A stretch of DNA of 64,000 nt from positions 4,431,001 through 4,495,000 of the forward strand of contig NC_089445.1 in assembly GCF_026210795.1 (NCBI RefSeq), in the 5' to 3' direction. A model generated the notes under the pieces. The model saw nothing but the letters and a program-made list of their open reading frames with translations, had not been told where the DNA came from and ran no database searches. A program made the position numbers and the translations under genes. Below, piece by piece: positions 39,010 to 46,589 of the stretch (position 1 is its first letter; each line of letters begins with the position of its first letter). The stretch comes from Rhizophagus irregularis (Eukaryota > Glomeromycota > Glomeromycetes > Glomerales > Glomeraceae).

Positions 39010-39300
39010 TTTAACAGTTTCATTAATTGAAAGTCTAATTTGATGCAAAAGTTTAAGTCTGATTGATGAAAAAGTTTAAGTCTGATTTGATCTGTTTAAT
39101 TAATTGAAAGTCTAATTTGATGCGAAAGTTTAAGTGTAATTGATCGTTGATTGTTGAGAGTCTAATTTGATACAAATGTTTAAGTGTAATTGATCGTTGA
39201 TTGTTGAGAGTCTAATTTGATAGTAAAAAATAGATATAAAAGGTGGACCAATTTTCTCGTCCGTACAAAAAATCTCTTTCTTTTTTTTTGAAAAAAAAAA
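39010..39300 (+). promoter_or_regulatory. Promoter-like region with tandem repeats and TATA box
   Basis: GAAAGTCTAATTTGATGC / GAGAGTCTAATTTGATAC units, each followed by AAGTTTAAGTGTAATTGATC, are repeated four or five times between 39025 and 39220. A TATAAAAG box lies at 39235-39242, 66 bp before the ATG at 39308. Repeated sites plus TATA at this spacing fit a core promoter with upstream elements. The downstream gene is now broken. Confidence 0.5.
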
Positions 39301-39307
39301 ACCAATA

Positions 39308-42223
39308 ATGACTCGTAAGAAACCATCGAAACCAAATACTAGTCCTCCACCAAATATTGCTGAGTCGTCAACACCAGCACCACAAAATATTGCTTCTTCA
39401 ACACCAACACCACAAAATATTGCCACTTCGTCAACACCAACACCTCCAAATATTGCCACTTCAACACCGGCATCACGATCGTCAGCATCAGCATCACGAA
39501 ATATTGCCACTTCGTCAACATCAACACCACAAAATATTGCTTCTTCAACAGCAACACCTCCAAATATTGCCACTTCGTCAACACCAACACCTCCAAATAT
39601 TGCCACTTCAACACTGGCATCATGATCATCAGCATCAGTATCACAAAATATTGCTTCTTCAACACCGGCATCATGATCGTCAACATCAGCATCACGAAAT
39701 ATTACCACTTCGTCAACACTAATACCACAAAATATTGCTTCTTCAACACCAACACCTCCAAATATTGCCACTTCAACACCGGCATCACGATCGTCAGCAT
39801 CAGTATCATGAAATATTGCTTCTTCAACACGTAATATTACCACTTCGTCAACACTATCAACACGTAATATTACCATTTCGTCAACATTAACATCACAAAA
39901 TACTAATACTACAGTTTCTTCATCTCCCTTTAAACTCGTTATTCCGCCAGATATTTCAGCCTCAATAGGTCGAACTCAATCTCAATCTCAACGAAATTTA
40001 ACGGCTTCGGATATTATTAAAAAATATCCTAATATTAATGTACCAAAAAGTTATCGTTCACATCACGAAAAAGGAGCACCAAGAAGTGATCGACCAAGTA
40101 ATGAAGAAACGGGTAAATCAAATTTGTTATTTTTATATTTTGATATTTATTATATTACATCTGTTTGTTACATATCCTTATAATTTAAAATAGGTAATTT
40201 TGAGTTAGGAAATTTAAAAAAAGAAACCCTTCGAATACAGAACGAATTAAAACAAGAAAAGTCCAAAGTAGCCGGAATGAAACGAAAAATAGATAATTTA
40301 GAAGACCATGTTCGTAGGATCGAGGAGGAGAACTCCATGTTACGGGATTTTAATGAAATTTTTAGTAACGAATCGAATGAATTATGTGAAGAAAATAAAG
40401 CTCTGCGAGAAGAACTTCAACAATCCAAACAACTTCATATACCTCGAAAGATTATTAATCCTTCGCAGCAATATTCACCAAAACGTCCCAATAAAAGATT
40501 AAAATCGAGAGAGGAATCTCCTGATGAAGTTGCCGCTACAGATGCAAGAGTAAGAATTTTACAAGACTATTTGCAGCTGAATTGTGTTAATGTATATATA
40601 CAGCTTTTATTATTTTATTATTTCCTCTTATTGTTTAGGCTGAAATGAAGAACCTCTTGAAAGGTCAAATACCCGAAGAATATCGGTTGGATTATGGTAA
40701 GACTTTCAGTGAACAGACAGCAAAGATATACGAAAAATTAATACCTGAATTAAAGAAGTTGATGAGTGGACATTATAATCCGTCGGTAACCCAATTGTCA
40801 GACTGGTTACGATTGATGCACAAGCATAAAAGAGATAGACAACGGAAATGACAATCAGGCCAATTAGACAAAGTAGATCGAAGAATGCACGTAAATGCGC
40901 AATTGTCCGAAGTGAGGAGTATTTTATTTTAATACACTTCTTTTTTTTAGTCATTTGAAATTAATCTTTATATATTCGACAGAAAAAAAATAGACGAGTA
41001 AAGGCCGCAATAAAATTATACGAAAGAAATAATGCCAACATACAGGAATTCAATAAAGATGAATTATTACCAATGCTCCTACAGAATGATTGTTATTCGA
41101 TTGAACAATCGGATTCCGAAGACGAATCAAGATAGAAATTGCCTAATAACAAGCGGTTCCTGCATGTATACGATTGGGAATGGCATTCAAACAAGGTATT
41201 AAAGTGATTATTGCTATTAACCTATTTTAATATTTATTCGATATATAAAGTTTATCTTTGTTTTAAATAGTTAAAACACCTATTACGAAACGTATTGGAC
41301 CCTGAAGCAGAATATATTTAACACGCAAAAAAGCAAAGAGAGAGAATTTATGATGATGACATGTATTTTACGTCTAGTGAACCTCTCAAGAATGCGCCTG
41401 AATGGGCGCTCGATAAAGCGAAAATGTACGAAACTGATGAAACCAACGAAACAAATGACGTTAGCGAATATGACGTGGCTGATGATGTGATTAGGGATGG
41501 GCGTTAATTAACCGTTAATTATGTTACTTATAATTAGTTTAAAATGGTTAATTAACCGTTACTTTAAATCAACCAATAAAAATGCAGAATTTAAGTCATG
41601 TGATTTTAATTATAATTTGATAATTATTAGTAAAAAATGGTATAGTCTGTGATAGTGATAATAGTACTATACTTGAATTTGAATCAAATGTAATAAGTTT
41701 AGATAATGAAAAATAAACAAAATATATAAGATTTATTATAATCATTTTAATAAATAAATAAATTTCATTGTTTTATTTTATTATTTATAAAAAATTAATA
41801 TATTAGTTAACTATAGGTTAATTAACCGTTAATTAACCGTTAATTAACTAGTTAATTAACCAAATTTATAATTAACCGTTACTTTCCCATCCCTAAATGT
41901 GATTGATGATTTAATTCAATCTTACGAAGATTGTGAGCCAATGGAGCCGAATTTAACGGAGTCATATTTGGATTTCTTGTTAAATTCAGCGGAAATGAAT
42001 TCGATTAGACCTGAAGATTTGGATGAGATTGGTGAAAGTTCGACGACAGTAAGTTGAATTGTTTTTAATATTTTTACATCGCAAATATCGCTAATTAATT
42101 TTATTTATATCATATTAGCAACAAAGAGCCAAAAGGAGTCAAAAAGGCAAAGAAAAAGCCACAAAAGAAGCAAAAGAAGACGAGAAAATTTATGAAATCT
42201 TTGAAGCCGACGAATATTATTAG
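39308..42223 (+). pseudogene. Broken multi-exon gene: S/T/P repeat, coiled coil, acidic tail
   Basis: One frame can be followed through several exons. It starts MTRKKPSKPNTSPPPN, followed by ~20 STPTPQNIAS-type repeats to about 39900 and then PFKLVIPPDISASIGRTQ. A GT-AG intron (about 40112-40193) leads to a coiled coil (KRKIDNLEDHVRRIEEENSM) and KRPNKRLKSREESPDE. A second intron ends at 40638, followed by PEEYRLDYGKTFSEQTAKIY and LSDWLRLMHKHKRDRQRK, then KAAIKLYERNNANIQEF and the acidic part NLTESYLDFLLNSAEM. It ends EIFEADEYY at 42223. Stops interrupt it at about 39623, 39672, 39807, 40849, 41132 and 41321, and a MITE sits in an exon at 41492-41895. A multicopy transposon-associated gene is likely; the function is not recognised. 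Confidence 0.6.
41492..41895. mobile_element. hAT-type MITE inside the pseudogene
   Basis: The terminal repeats TAGGGATGGG and CCCATCCCTA are perfect over 10 bp. The flanks GATGTGAT (41484-41491) and AATGTGAT (41896-41903) are an 8-bp duplication with one mismatch. The interior is built of TTAATTAACCGTTAATTA words. Removing the element and one flank restores the reading ADDVIDDLIQSYED across the junction. Confidence 0.88.
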
Positions 42224-42740: not shown

Positions 42741-43085
42741 AAATTAGTTAAATAGGGTATCAATAGATTATCAATAAGTTATCAATCGGCTATCAATAGG
42801 CTACCCTATTGGTAGCCTATTGAACTTGCGCCATAATCCGTCACCAATCGGGCAGGCTGATTGATAACCTATTGATAACTATTAATACCTTCATTGATAA
42901 CCAATTTGATAAAAATACCAATAGGATACTAATAGGTTATCAATAAGTTATTAATTGGCTAACAATCAGCCTGCCCGATTGGTGACGGATTATGGCGCAA
43001 GTTCAATAGGCTACCAATAGGGTAGCCTATTGATAGCTGATTGATAACCTATTATAACTCTATTGATACCCTATTTAACTAATTT
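42741..43085. mobile_element. 345-bp near-perfect foldback element
   Basis: It runs from AAATTAGTTAAATAGGGT to its complement ACCCTATTTAACTAATTT. Both arms carry TATCAATAGG, GGTAGCCTATTG, AACTTGCGCCATAATCCGTC and CCGATTGGTGACGG blocks in reverse-complement order, with a short AT loop around 42895-42925. TA dinucleotides at the tips could be a mariner-type duplication. It has no coding sequence. Confidence 0.7.
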
Positions 43086-43107
43086 TGACCTGTGTATATT
43101 TCGACCA

Positions 43108-43359
43108 ATGATACAAGATATGACTACAAATGGGCGTTACCGGCTGCATGGTGACTGCACAATTTGTGGTATACATAAGAATACTTTTACTGGAATAGAC
43201 TGGGTTATCAAAAAGAAGTCTAAGGAGAAGAAAAAAGAAACTGCGGCCAAAAGACATCAAACAGTTTATAATCGGCAGTGTAAAAAACTCAGGCAGAAAA
43301 TTTTAGAAGCTGATGACGCGTGTAAACAGTGTATTGATAAATGCCTTAAGGAAGCATAA
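43108..43359 (+). CDS. Small basic zinc-finger protein, DUF5679-like (tentative)
   Basis: The 83-residue frame starts at the ATG at 43108. The core TTNGRYRLHGDCTICGIHKN looks like the NGR...GxCxxCGxxK signature of the short zinc-binding DUF5679-type proteins I associate with large DNA viruses and virus-like mobile elements. This is family recall and not a search. A lysine-rich middle (KKKSKEKKKETAAKR) is followed by a second cysteine pair (CKQCIDKC). The frame is intact, unlike its neighbours. It lies just after the foldback element and before the helicase block, on the opposite strand to the helicase, so it may belong to the same mobile element. Confidence 0.4.
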   Translation: MIQDMTTNGRYRLHGDCTICGIHKNTFTGIDWVIKKKSKEKKKETAAKRHQTVYNRQCKKLRQKILEADDACKQCIDKCLKEA

Positions 43360-43439
43360 AAGAGGAAAACGGATTAGTACTGCCTTCTAAAAGTATTCTT
43401 TATTATCTGAATCGTCTTGGTATACCCATTGTTCAATTA

Positions 43440-44756
43440 CTTATTTTTTCTGACGGGGGCTGGACAGGGTTGGTTTTACTGGCTCTATAGACCTTCTAGG
43501 GGCTTACCTGTTAATAAAGCTCCGAATGATTCGGGCTAAACCGGGGAACCGATCCGAAACCGGCTCAAAATTCGGTTCAATTCGGTTCGGGTATTAGAAC
43601 CGAAAAACCGGTGGTTCAGTTCGGTTTAATTCGATTTTTTATAAAAATGCAAAAAATCGAATAGCCGGCCATCTAGTGATCGTACAAAGTCGAGCCATAT
43701 ATCATTGGATTTGTCTCAACGAGACGCGTCGAATGGTGGTAAAATCACGTCTCTAGCATCGATAGATAGCTTGCTAATGCCAATTTTTTATAAATCATTT
43801 AGCGTGAATTAACTTACGATCTATTGATGCTAGGGACATGATCTCATCACCATTCGACTCGTCTCATTGAGACGAATGCAATGAGTCCTAATTCATATTT
43901 GTACGACCATTGGACGACGAATAAATTCATGTATCGGAATTTTTAATTTTTAACGCTCGAAAATTTTAAAAAAATGCGAAACTTGATATTATTCGCCATC
44001 CAGTGGTCGTACACGAACGAATTTATATTCATTGGATTCGTCTCACTGAGACGCGTCGAATGGTGCTAAGATCATGTCTCTAGCACCGATAGATAGCTTG
44101 CTAATTCCAATTATTTATAAATCATTTAGCGTGGGTTAACGTGTGATCTATCAATGCTAGAGACATGATCTTACCTCCATTCGACGCGTCTCGTCGAGAC
44201 GAATCCAATGATATATGGCTCGAATTTATACGATCACTAGATGGCCGGCTATTCGATTTTTCGCATTTTTATAAAAATCGGATTAAACCAAACCAAATTG
44301 CCGGTTTTTCAGTTCGGTTCTTACGGATTTCGGCTCTAATCCGAACCATCTATAATCCGGACCAAACTGACCCGTTTGGAGCTTTACCTGTTAATCTACC
44401 TGGTTTGCTGTCTCACTGCTTCCAATAGGAAAATGAATGGAATCCTGTACGTGTGGAAGATGTTCCAGATGTGGAGGATCTGGAAGGGTAAAATCAAAAC
44501 TTTTTTCTGGGGGAATCCCTCTCCCAATTTTTTTAAAACATCCTCCACATCCTCCACACTCTTCTGATTCCCTCTTATTTTCCTCTCTTTTCCCTTATTT
44601 TATCCTTTTTTGTTATATATTTTTGTGGAGGATCTATGTGGAGGATTGTGGAGGATCTATGGGGGATTCTTGAGCCCCGTAGAGGACATATAGGTACTGC
44701 GAGGCCATGAGGTCGAGGTGGGTGGAGTGGTAGCGAGACCCACATCCAGCCCGATG
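43440..44756 (+). repeat. Iteron-like block, copy 1 (word GTGGAGGAT)
   Basis: After subtraction of the inserted MITE (43515-44386) and one duplicated octamer, about 437 bp remain. They match 45940-46378 in order: ACCTTCTAGGG, CTGTCTCACTGCTTCC, GGTAAAATCAAAACTTTTTT, CCTCTCTTTTCCCTTATTTT, GGTACTGCGAGGCC, CCCGATGAC. The differing parts are short repeats: GTGGAAGATGT and GTGGAGGATCTGG (44452-44488), two inverted ATCCTCCAC copies (44540-44560) and three direct GTGGAGGAT copies (44624-44660). The 3' end abuts the broken 3' end of the helicase pseudogene. Confidence 0.7.
43515..44386. mobile_element. 872-bp hAT-type MITE, TIR TAAAGCTCC
   Basis: The ends TAAAGCTCCGAA and TTTGGAGCTTTA are flanked by exact 8-bp duplications CCTGTTAA at 43507-43514 and 44387-44394. 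The interior is nested palindromes: outer CCGGTTTTTCGGTT-type words, inner arms ATAGCCGGCCATCTAGTGAT and complement, and four GTCTC...GAGAC modules (ACCATTCGACTCGTCTCATT and variants). It is non-coding. Confidence 0.88.
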
Positions 44757-45887
44757 ACTTAGATGTTGTCATGGGTAGCGGATTCCCATTGAAGTCTGGG
44801 TAAGTGTTCGCGACGGCTCTCAAGTAAGCATAGAACGCCTCACTGGCTGACTGGCACCTAGGTATTTCATAGCGTTACCGAGTTTTTTGAAGTAGTTGAG
44901 GTCTCCCTTGCGGGATGGTGACACATCCAAGAACACTGTGCGCCTATCATCATTCTCCACTCTGAGAGCATTTTCGTTGATTAGGATGATGGTAGACATA
45001 AAGTTCTTGTAATGTGTTGGCGTCTTGTATTTTTCATGGATTTCCATTATGTCACTCATTACCTTATCCTTCAAAGAGCGATACAGATTATTCCACTGGT
45101 TTTTTTCCGTGAGCATTTCCTCGAGAAGAAGAAGAACCTTACCCTGTAATTGCCCATTGAAACTTCCAAGAATCGTCTGAGGATCGCTGGTCTTATAAAC
45201 GAGTTGAGTGCCTAGGACGCTGCACTAAATGAAATCTGTTATAATACCTTTGCCCCAATCCTGTCCGGATTTTAGGTAGAGAATCGAGTAAATCTTCCTT
45301 CCAGCAGATACACCGGCCAACCACTTGATAATATACTCAGTGAGATTCCAATCACCCAAATACCAGATATCCTGAATGTGAGAGAAAATAAATTTAACCG
45401 CGAGGTGAATTGTAGACTCAAAGGTGAATATTAGACGTAAGACGTGGAGGAATCCCAGGAAGATATTTAGATAGAGTTGGCCGGTTAAGGATCTGAAGAT
45501 TCGCTATTTATGGGAATCACAGGTTGCGATACATACATCGGTATTCTCGACCATAAACCACTTGTAGATGTTGAACTCAGTCTTTTGAGAGGGTCCTTGT
45601 TCAGGTTATGTGTAGAATGCTTTCGTGATTGGACGGATAAGTTTACCAATATTTTTGTCAATAACGTATTTCAAACTTTTACTATTTGGGTCCCACCAGA
45701 AAACTCCATGAGGATCTGCACAGGGAATGAAATAACTGTAAAGATACCTCTTGGCTTGATCAAAATCACTCATACTCTTTGCAGTGACAATAAGCCGTTT
45801 AAGCTCATTGATACTGAAGGCTTTCTTTTGTTCACTGAACTTAGGGATAACTTGAGCTTGAGTGGTCATTTTTTTTTGTTCTATCAA
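44757..45887 (-). pseudogene. Decayed SF3-type primase-helicase (NrS-1 polymerase-like)
   Basis: The minus frame begins near MTTQAQVIPKFSEQ (ATG 45869, or 45887). It holds LYLKSGQDWGKGIITDF (Walker A GxxxxGK, about 45290-45240), KVLLLLEE (Walker B) and STIILINENALR (SF3 motif C with Asn). The run of motifs and the helical YIIKWLAGVSAGRK block fit the D5-like/NrS-1 polymerase-like helicases of viruses and replicating mobile elements. Three in-frame stops (TAA 45608-45606, TAG 45506-45504, TAG 45227-45225) and a frameshift near 44855 disable it. The 3' end stops at NPLPMTTSK, where repeat block copy 1 begins. A replication role for the parent element is inferred. Confidence 0.75.
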
Positions 45888-45939
45888 ATCGAGTACTAAT
45901 TTATAGTTACCTAATCTTCAATTGCTGAATGTATTTTTT

Positions 45940-46378
45940 CCAAATATCCGCATTCCTACCCGGTTACCCTCCTGTGGTTCTACAGACCTTCTAGGGACTA
46001 TTAACCTACCTGTTTACTCAGTTTGCTATCTCACTGCTTCCGACAAATGAATAGACTGAATCCTGATCATATGACAGATCTATAACAGAATGACAGATCT
46101 GGGGGGTAAAATCAAAACTTTTTTCTGGGGATATCCTCTCCCGATTTTTCTGAAACATCTGTCATATCCGTCATATCTGTCATACCCTCTGATTCTATCG
46201 TATTTTCCTCTCTTTTCCCTTATTTTATCCTTTTTTAGTATATTATTATATGACAGATGTTAATGACAGATGGTGACAGATATAGGGAATTTCCTACCCC
46301 ATGGAGGGGGGATGTAGGTACTGCGAGGCCGTAAGGCCGAGGTGGAGGAGCGTAGCGAGTACACTACTAGCCCGATGA
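45940..46378 (+). repeat. Iteron-like block, copy 2 (word ATGACAGAT)
   Basis: It has the same scaffold as copy 1 (CTACAGACCTTCTAGGGA to GCCCGATGAC) in direct orientation. At the corresponding places it carries ATGACAGAT instead of GTGGAGGAT: two direct copies around 46070-46101, three inverted ATCTGTCAT-type copies (46159-46183) and three direct copies (46249-46282). It lies just upstream of the helicase start. A hairpin GAGGCCGTAAGGCCGAGG follows near 46324. Confidence 0.7.
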
Positions 46379-46589
46379 CCTTTGATGGGGGAATTTAAAA
46401 CTAAAAAAAAACATATACAAAAAGAAAATTATGTTCTAATAAAAAAAATAAAAAAAAATAAAATTAGACATTTTTTAATAAGAAAAAAAAAAGTACTGAA
46501 CAGATTGATTAGTGAAATTGATCGAACCTACTTCCTAAAAAAACCTAAGATCATCGTCTTATTCTTTCAAGGAGGCGGCAACCTCGTAG

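What the first reader, a model, noticed from the sequence alone, without database searches (positions are those of the whole stretch)
43440..46378. Two copies of one 437-bp block carry different, co-varying repeat words (swapped iterons)
Blocks 43440-44756 (minus a MITE) and 45940-46378 share their backbone. At each of three sites copy 1 has GTGGAGGAT and copy 2 has ATGACAGAT, in matching order: direct, inverted, direct. About seven to eight repeats have therefore changed together while the DNA between them stayed alike. Such concerted change is expected if a sequence-specific protein binds all copies (iterons, transposase sites), or if the direct and inverted sets must pair in single-stranded DNA or RNA. 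A helicase of replication type lies between the blocks, so an origin-like role with switchable specificity is a reasonable guess.
Basis: partly seen in the sequence, partly recalled or inferred. Interest (0 to 1): 0.88.

Follow-up and report, generated by a model that had tools for sequence, protein, structure and literature searches.

The report
Transposon ends matched to helicase wing
The two repeat blocks are ends of two different Polinton-type giant transposons of an arbuscular mycorrhizal fungus, and in the copies that could be read across the genome the repeated word in such ends is matched by a short stretch in the DNA-binding wing of the element's own helicase, which looks like a natural set of lock-and-key replication signals.

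Summary
In detail: block 1 carries GTGGAGGAT and block 2 ATGACAGAT in matching direct/inverted/direct slots. The blocks are ends of two nested, decayed Mavericks/Polintons in Rhizophagus irregularis; element 1 lies in element 2's helicase remnant. Genome-wide, such ends carry one of six word types, the same at both ends in 67 of 68 pairs. The word matches a roughly 16-residue segment of the element's D5/DUF5906-type helicase in 73 of 73 copies with readable segment and reachable end. In eight elements, word-diagnostic residues number 9 in the helicase, 1 in a small ORF and 0 in polymerase, integrase and ATPase. The segment is the wing hairpin of a C-terminal winged helix, weakly resembling RFX and the phage P4 origin-binding domain. 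Word block and wing moved together between two backbone families, while about 1.3 kb of helicase core between them did not. Best reading: the helicase is a self-loading replication initiator that reads its own iterons, with modular specificity that switched repeatedly. DNA binding and replication are inferred, not shown.

The parts
43111..44758 (+). Right (non-helicase) end of decayed Maverick/Polinton 1, truncated on its left, interrupted by a MITE-like insert; outer terminus at 44758
   Evidence: blastn to L040/L045 element ends, 85-89% identity; terminal AGCCCGATGAC
43063..43359 (+). ORF matching the region next to the non-helicase end of intact elements (C-terminal part of the 170-aa ORF of L045)
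43516..44382 (.). MITE-like inverted-repeat insert inside element 1
   Evidence: gap between the 43111-43515 and 44383-44761 matches; inverted repeats I1-I5
44453..44479 (+). Direct iteron slots 1-3 of block 1 (word GTGGAGGAT; slot 1 one mismatch, slot 2 degenerate)
44540..44557 (-). Inverted iteron slots of block 1 (two exact words; several other copies of this word type show three)
44625..44656 (+). Direct iteron slots 7-9 of block 1 (three exact words)
44759..46379 (-). Helicase end of Maverick/Polinton 2 (family A), cut at about 44759 by the end of element 1
   Evidence: blastn 92.8% to L034 over 1621 bp
44759..45869 (-). Remnant of the D5/DUF5906-type helicase of element 2 (codons 1 to about 368 of about 780; stops and a frameshift; winged helix not present)
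   Evidence: tblastn 90.6% over 341 aa plus a 32-aa piece; stops
46071..46098 (+). Direct iteron slots 1-3 of block 2 (word ATGACAGAT)
46157..46183 (-). Inverted iteron slots 4-6 of block 2
46250..46281 (+). Direct iteron slots 7-9 of block 2
44487..44506 (+). Constant core GGTAAAATCAAAACTTTTTT of block 1; 80 exact sites genome-wide, reversed control 1
46105..46124 (+). Constant core of block 2

Best explanation
The blocks are subterminal parts of the terminal inverted repeats of Maverick/Polinton elements. Each carries an array of about nine 9-bp iterons (three direct, three inverted, three direct). The element's own D5/DUF5906-type SF3 helicase carries a C-terminal winged helix whose wing hairpin (residues about 432-446) recognises the iteron word. 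The helicase is thereby loaded on the termini of its own element and opens them for protein-primed replication by the element's B-family polymerase. At least six word/wing pairs coexist in one genome. Wing and word array are exchanged together by recombination, because only matched combinations replicate. This gives co-resident elements separate replication specificities and a way out of parasitism by defective elements carrying the same word. Shown: the arrays, the one-to-one word/wing match in the copies read, its near-confinement to the wing, and the joint exchange across an unexchanged helicase core (firm for words V1 and V2). Inferred: DNA binding, helicase loading, origin function, and the selective reason.
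Confidence: 0.74

Rival explanations
1. The winged helix reads the words as operators: the helicase regulates transcription of the end genes (helicase at one end, a 171-aa ORF at the other), and the coupling is autoregulatory or derepressing rather than helicase loading at an origin.
For: Words lie a few hundred bp upstream of the helicase start, and in the copies read both ends have an ORF reading inward. Iterons as repressor sites are argued for a geminivirus (abstract).
Against: Relatives with this architecture use the C-terminal domain at origins. The snap-back element has no match to the replication genes yet keeps both arrays and a target duplication. The array is also kept at the end that does not carry the helicase.
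Confidence: 0.14
2. Words change together because direct and inverted arrays must pair in single-stranded DNA or RNA (hairpin or panhandle).
For: Each block has both orientations of its word.
Against: Pairing alone does not predict a matched segment in a protein 1.5-2.1 kb away, nor its confinement to the wing. V6 arrays hold mixed words whose direct and inverted copies do not all pair.
Confidence: 0.05
3. Mere history: six subfamilies each with its own ends and helicase; the match is linkage without function.
For: The arrays and the helicase gene are neighbours at one end, copies are related, and the word label is more clustered on the core tree than shuffled labels (7 against a mean of 12.1).
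Against: The helicase core between array and wing follows another history, the other end shares the word too, and of the other genes scored only one column shows the pattern.
Confidence: 0.04
4. The words are integrase or host-factor sites.
For: Mobile elements often have subterminal transposase sites (recalled).
Against: 0 word-diagnostic residues among 375 scored integrase columns; a host factor would not explain the wing match.
Confidence: 0.03

Closest known systems
SaPI Rep / SCCmec Cch2 self-loading initiator helicases with iteron origins
   Different: Bacterial islands with an origin beside the helicase gene; here a eukaryotic TIR element with arrays at both ends and six coexisting specificities
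Maverick/Polinton elements (reported from Glomus intraradices = R. irregularis)
   Same: B-family polymerase, rve integrase, A32-like ATPase, long TIRs; no detectable MCP was already reported for Polintons of this fungus (passage of PMC7805220)
   Different: In the passages and listings I saw, no iteron arrays in the TIRs and no initiator/iteron pairing are described
Geminivirus iterons and Rep
   Same: Iteron sequences differ between close relatives and interact with cognate Rep (abstract of PMC12548392)
   Different: Rep of circular ssDNA genomes there; here a D5-type helicase with a winged helix on linear TIR elements. The same abstract argues that iterons repress unless bound by the matching Rep and are not essential for replication
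Phage P4 alpha origin-binding domain and RFX1/RFX5 winged helix
   Different: Single specificities there (recalled); here the wing is the variable part
Plasmid incompatibility groups
   Same: Co-resident replicons kept apart by iteron/initiator specificity (recalled)
   Different: Integrated eukaryotic elements; no incompatibility measured

Membership tests
Maverick/Polinton | Long terminal inverted repeats at both ends | tested here: met
   in 67 of 68 minus/plus end pairs both ends carry the same word; 44 of 180 end sites stayed unpaired
Maverick/Polinton | Short target-site duplication | tested here: met
   5 bp in 8 of 8 pairs in which the end pattern was found on both sides, of 13 pairs examined; in the other 5 at least one end was not found by the pattern. 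The usual 6 bp is recalled
[quoted passage not shown]
   DNA_pol_B_2 E 6.7e-6, 25.7 bits against a cut-off of 25.8; terminal protein not tested
Maverick/Polinton | Retroviral-type (rve) integrase | tested here: met
   PF00665 33.1 bits (cut-off 32.6) and chromodomain 62.3 bits
Maverick/Polinton | A32/FtsK-like packaging ATPase | tested here: met
   PF04665 35 bits (cut-off 22.8)
Maverick/Polinton | Jelly-roll capsid proteins and adenovirus-type protease | tested here: inconclusive
   No such Pfam match in the L044/L045 ORFs scanned; a retropepsin-like ORF is present; a PMC7805220 passage says no MCP was detectable in Polintons of this fungus
D5-family self-loading initiator helicase | DUF5906 AAA+ domain | tested here: met
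D5-family self-loading initiator helicase | C-terminal Pox_D5/winged-helix domain | tested here: met
   Pox_D5 22.7 bits over cut-off 21.4 in the L034 copy; 18.9, under the cut-off, in L044; winged-helix model pLDDT 92
D5-family self-loading initiator helicase | C-terminal domain binds cognate iterons | not testable with these tools
   Only the covariation is shown
Geminivirus-type Rep/iteron system | Rolling-circle endonuclease Rep | tested here: inconclusive
   No Rep endonuclease family in Pfam scans of the ORFs given; not filed here

The most novel reading that the evidence does not exclude
A single fungal genome houses at least six orthogonal replication-specificity classes of the same virus-like transposon. 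Specificity is a portable module: a roughly 120-bp wing cassette in the helicase plus the iteron arrays at both ends. The module is repeatedly transplanted between element backbones, so that elements behave like eukaryotic incompatibility groups and dodge defective parasites. The natural alleles would then give a readable wing-to-word recognition code.
Probability: 0.5. Interest if true: 0.92.

Novelty: new variant of a known kind. Interest (0 to 1): 0.84.

Why it matters
How Polintons start replication, and how many near-identical copies in one nucleus avoid replicating each other or their parasites, is open as far as I know (recalled). If right, this shows an initiator and its origin words co-diversifying in one genome, makes cognate specificity directly testable with natural parts, and gives a rare data set for decoding wing-type winged-helix recognition.

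Tried and rejected
Reading the two blocks as one replicon around a helicase: rejected, they are ends of two elements. A strict residue-to-base rule at position 446 (Arg with C5, Gln with A5): not kept, since Gln also occurs in two ATGACAGAT-type copies, L081 and L122. The core pattern with up to 3 mismatches was uninformative (660 hits against 467 for the reversed control). Viral contigs: the exact core pattern gave 0 hits, and a scan with the helicase alignment gave two distant loci (26% identity) of no use here. phmmer of the helicase against PDB sequences gave no convincing relative; the winged-helix profile gave only RFX5 at E 0.054. In the structure comparisons other families may be missing without meaning.

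Rows dropped before counts: of 58 hits of the V2 pattern, 28 sites were kept, merging overlapping hits and dropping slot 1-2 hits on the other strand. Of 85 cassette sites, 2 were not fetched and 10 have no word end within 4 kb in the right orientation. In one search two frameshifted copies (L125, L126) were mis-called by protein; re-called all copies by DNA, including other broken ones (L056, L080, L102). One row (L058, insert in the helicase) was left out of the tree. L053 and L054 missed the cassette. L110, fetched upstream of the V5-like L078, holds a V6-type end in the opposite orientation; by position it is the end of the neighbouring V6 element of L077. L115 and L117 showed no end.

Literature: passages only were read of PMC8647823, PMC11075540, PMC4409740, PMC9611036, PMC10516667, PMC7581432, PMC5294986 and PMC7805220; abstract, importance paragraph and section list of PMC12548392; all others as search listings. 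That I found no earlier report rests in a library of open-licence PMC papers; it is not proof of absence.

Full report
WHAT IS THERE. The window lies in a 146.7-Mb assembly at C17:4431001-4495000. The commonest 9-mer occurs 6 times in each block and at most 4 times in 2000 shuffles.

WHAT THE BLOCKS ARE. The core GGTAAAATCAAAACTTTTTT has 80 exact sites in the genome (1 for the reversed control), mostly as a minus site followed by a plus site about 14-40 kb away. These are inverted ends of large elements. Element genes, read in two 14.5-kb copies and scanned in one of them, include a helicase at one end, a B-family polymerase, an A32-like ATPase, an rve integrase with chromodomain and a retropepsin-like protease. 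A 5-bp target duplication is present in 8 of 8 pairs with both ends found, of 13 examined. This fits Maverick/Polinton elements. Mavericks are among the recently expanded elements of this fungus, with numerous lowly methylated copies (passages of PMC8647823), and Polintons of this species had no detectable MCP (passage of PMC7805220). In the window, 43111-44758 is the non-helicase end of one element, holding a MITE-like insert. It abuts, at the element's terminus, the helicase remnant and end (44759-46379) of a second element. Most simply, the first element inserted into the second one's helicase, and later loss removed the rest; the other side of the insertion is not in the window, so this order is inferred.

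SIX WORDS. Reading ends in full gave six word types in the same slots: V1 ATGACAGAT, V2 GTGGAGGAT, V3 GTAACRGAT, V4 GTTTCAGAT, V5 GGGACAGAT, V6 GTNNCRGAT. V6 is a mixture: the slots of one block differ among themselves, and the five V6 ends read (L110, L112, L113, L114, L116) show nearly the same mixture slot by slot. Word-specific patterns located 47, 28, 13, 26, 8 and 58 end sites (V1 to V6 in that order; up to 1 mismatch, 2 for V5; reversed controls 0 in all six; V2 after merging, see Tried and rejected). Consecutive minus/plus ends 2-45 kb apart gave 68 pairs: 67 share the word and 1 (on C22) does not; 44 of the 180 sites stayed unpaired. Shuffled pairs agree 16.3 times on average, 30 at most.

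THE MATCHING PROTEIN SEGMENT. Aligning the helicases of eight elements of two backbone families (A and B) showed about 16 residues after an invariant SKINASRILSNEL that follow the word and not the family. The DNA of this site was located genome-wide (85 sites with at most 1 mismatch, reversed control 0) and read for 83 of them (one search lists them). Of these 83, 73 have a correctly oriented word end within 4 kb and 10 do not; 2 of the 85 sites were not fetched. All 73 agree when called by DNA: V1 17, V2 10, V3 7, V4 9, V5 4, V6 26. Within spacing class A the count is 30 of 30 (shuffled mean 6.5, maximum 16) and within B 43 of 43 (18.9, maximum 30). V1 (6 A, 11 B) and V2 (6 A, 4 B) occur in both classes; V3 only in A, V6 only in B; V4 and V5 have one B outlier each. 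For 30 of the 73 the helicase-side end was read letter by letter (10, 12, 8); for the others the word rests on the pattern hits. The wing types V5 and V6 were read before their ends. The notebook then held the prediction that their words would differ from the four known; of ten stretches fetched, seven showed two new word types, two had no end and one had a neighbour's end. The prediction was that the words would differ, not which words, and the missing core motif near these sites already pointed to different ends.

SPECIFICITY OF THE SIGNAL. In eight elements, columns constant within each word group (V1, V2, V3) and different between V1 and V2 number 9 in the helicase (434, 436, 437, 439, 441, 443, 445, 446, 459), 1 in a 134-aa ORF, and 0 in polymerase (617 columns), integrase (375), ATPase (389), the 498-aa ORF (495), the protease (243) and the others scored; one ORF (178 aa) had no scorable column and one (171 aa) only 62. 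In 38 database helicases the decade 431-440 is the most variable of residues 1-510 (entropy 1.04), between 421-430 (0.05) and, after 441-450 (0.73), 451-460 (0.17).

NOT LINKAGE. Sliding comparison from end to helicase shows two word-linked islands, the iteron block and the wing. At the wing, A-V1 and B-V1 differ by 0.00 and A-V2 and B-V2 by 0.02, while A-V1/A-V2 and B-V1/B-V2 each differ by 0.42. In the core between the islands it is the reverse (mostly 0.00-0.08 within a family, up to 0.40 between families). A-V1 and B-V1 share a 119-bp identical run over codons 418-457, next longest 46; for A-V2 and B-V2 the cassette holds runs of 41 and 38 bp and the longest run, 52, lies elsewhere. On a tree of the helicase core (23 rows) the label needs 7 changes, with a minimum of 3; shuffled labels need 12.1 on average, so the label is clustered but not one-origin. 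V1 and V2 lie in both 100%-supported clades, and V3 and V4 mix within one supported branch; 5 of 19 inner branches are well supported and the bootstrap had not settled. The copies are related, so the number of independent switches is of this order, not 73.

MECHANISM. [quoted passage not shown] By analogy the Maverick helicase most likely binds the array at each terminus with its winged helix, loads, and opens the end for protein-primed synthesis. Shown here: arrays, match, near-confinement and joint exchange. Inferred: binding, loading, replication; also inferred is that the invariant helix reads the constant GAT and the wing the variable letters. A promoter or repressor role of the arrays is the main rival; for a geminivirus a recent abstract argues that iterons repress unless bound by the matching Rep (PMC12548392). 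A 3038-bp element on C6 has 934-bp arms that are 100% identical, with about 760 bp of each derived from the non-helicase end of a V1-type element, a target duplication, and no match to the helicase, polymerase or integrase. It suggests that ends alone suffice and are served in trans, and that defective elements exploit the word, which is a plausible pressure to change it (inference).

NOVELTY. Iteron/initiator pairing and its diversification are known in geminiviruses (abstract of PMC12548392), and iteron recognition by such helicases in bacterial islands. What looks new is its presence in Polinton ends, six coexisting specificities in one genome, and the modular joint exchange of wing and words. 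My searches found no such report in the library held.

Noticed in passing
G000 C6, about 1450872-1453909 (in L019/L020): Snap-back defective element: 3038 bp, 934-bp perfectly identical inverted arms, largely from the non-helicase end, loop of unidentified sequence, 5-bp target duplication; resembles defective DNAs of protein-primed systems (recalled)
   Followed up: partly
L045:731-2943: The element carries a retropepsin-like ORF beside a 498-aa ORF of Gag-like look (no Pfam family) next to the integrase, and no capsid gene recognised by Pfam in the ORFs scanned
   Followed up: partly
L044:6554-6955; L045:4430-4942: A weak F-box match in one small ORF (E 0.008, below cut-off); a 171-aa ORF reading inward from the non-helicase end has no F-box match in Pfam
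   Followed up: no
G000 C29:165967-170245 and C28:695400-706027: Unusually close end pairs (4.3 and 10.6 kb) with the GTTTCAGAT word, possible further defective elements
   Followed up: no
window 43516-44382: About 870-bp MITE-like insert built of nested inverted repeats inside the end of element 1
   Followed up: no
window 39130-39876: ORF of tandem repeats open in several frames on both strands
   Followed up: no
P0037, P0055, P0040 (R. clarus and metagenome helicases): Further wing variants in other species; their end words could not be read here
   Followed up: partly
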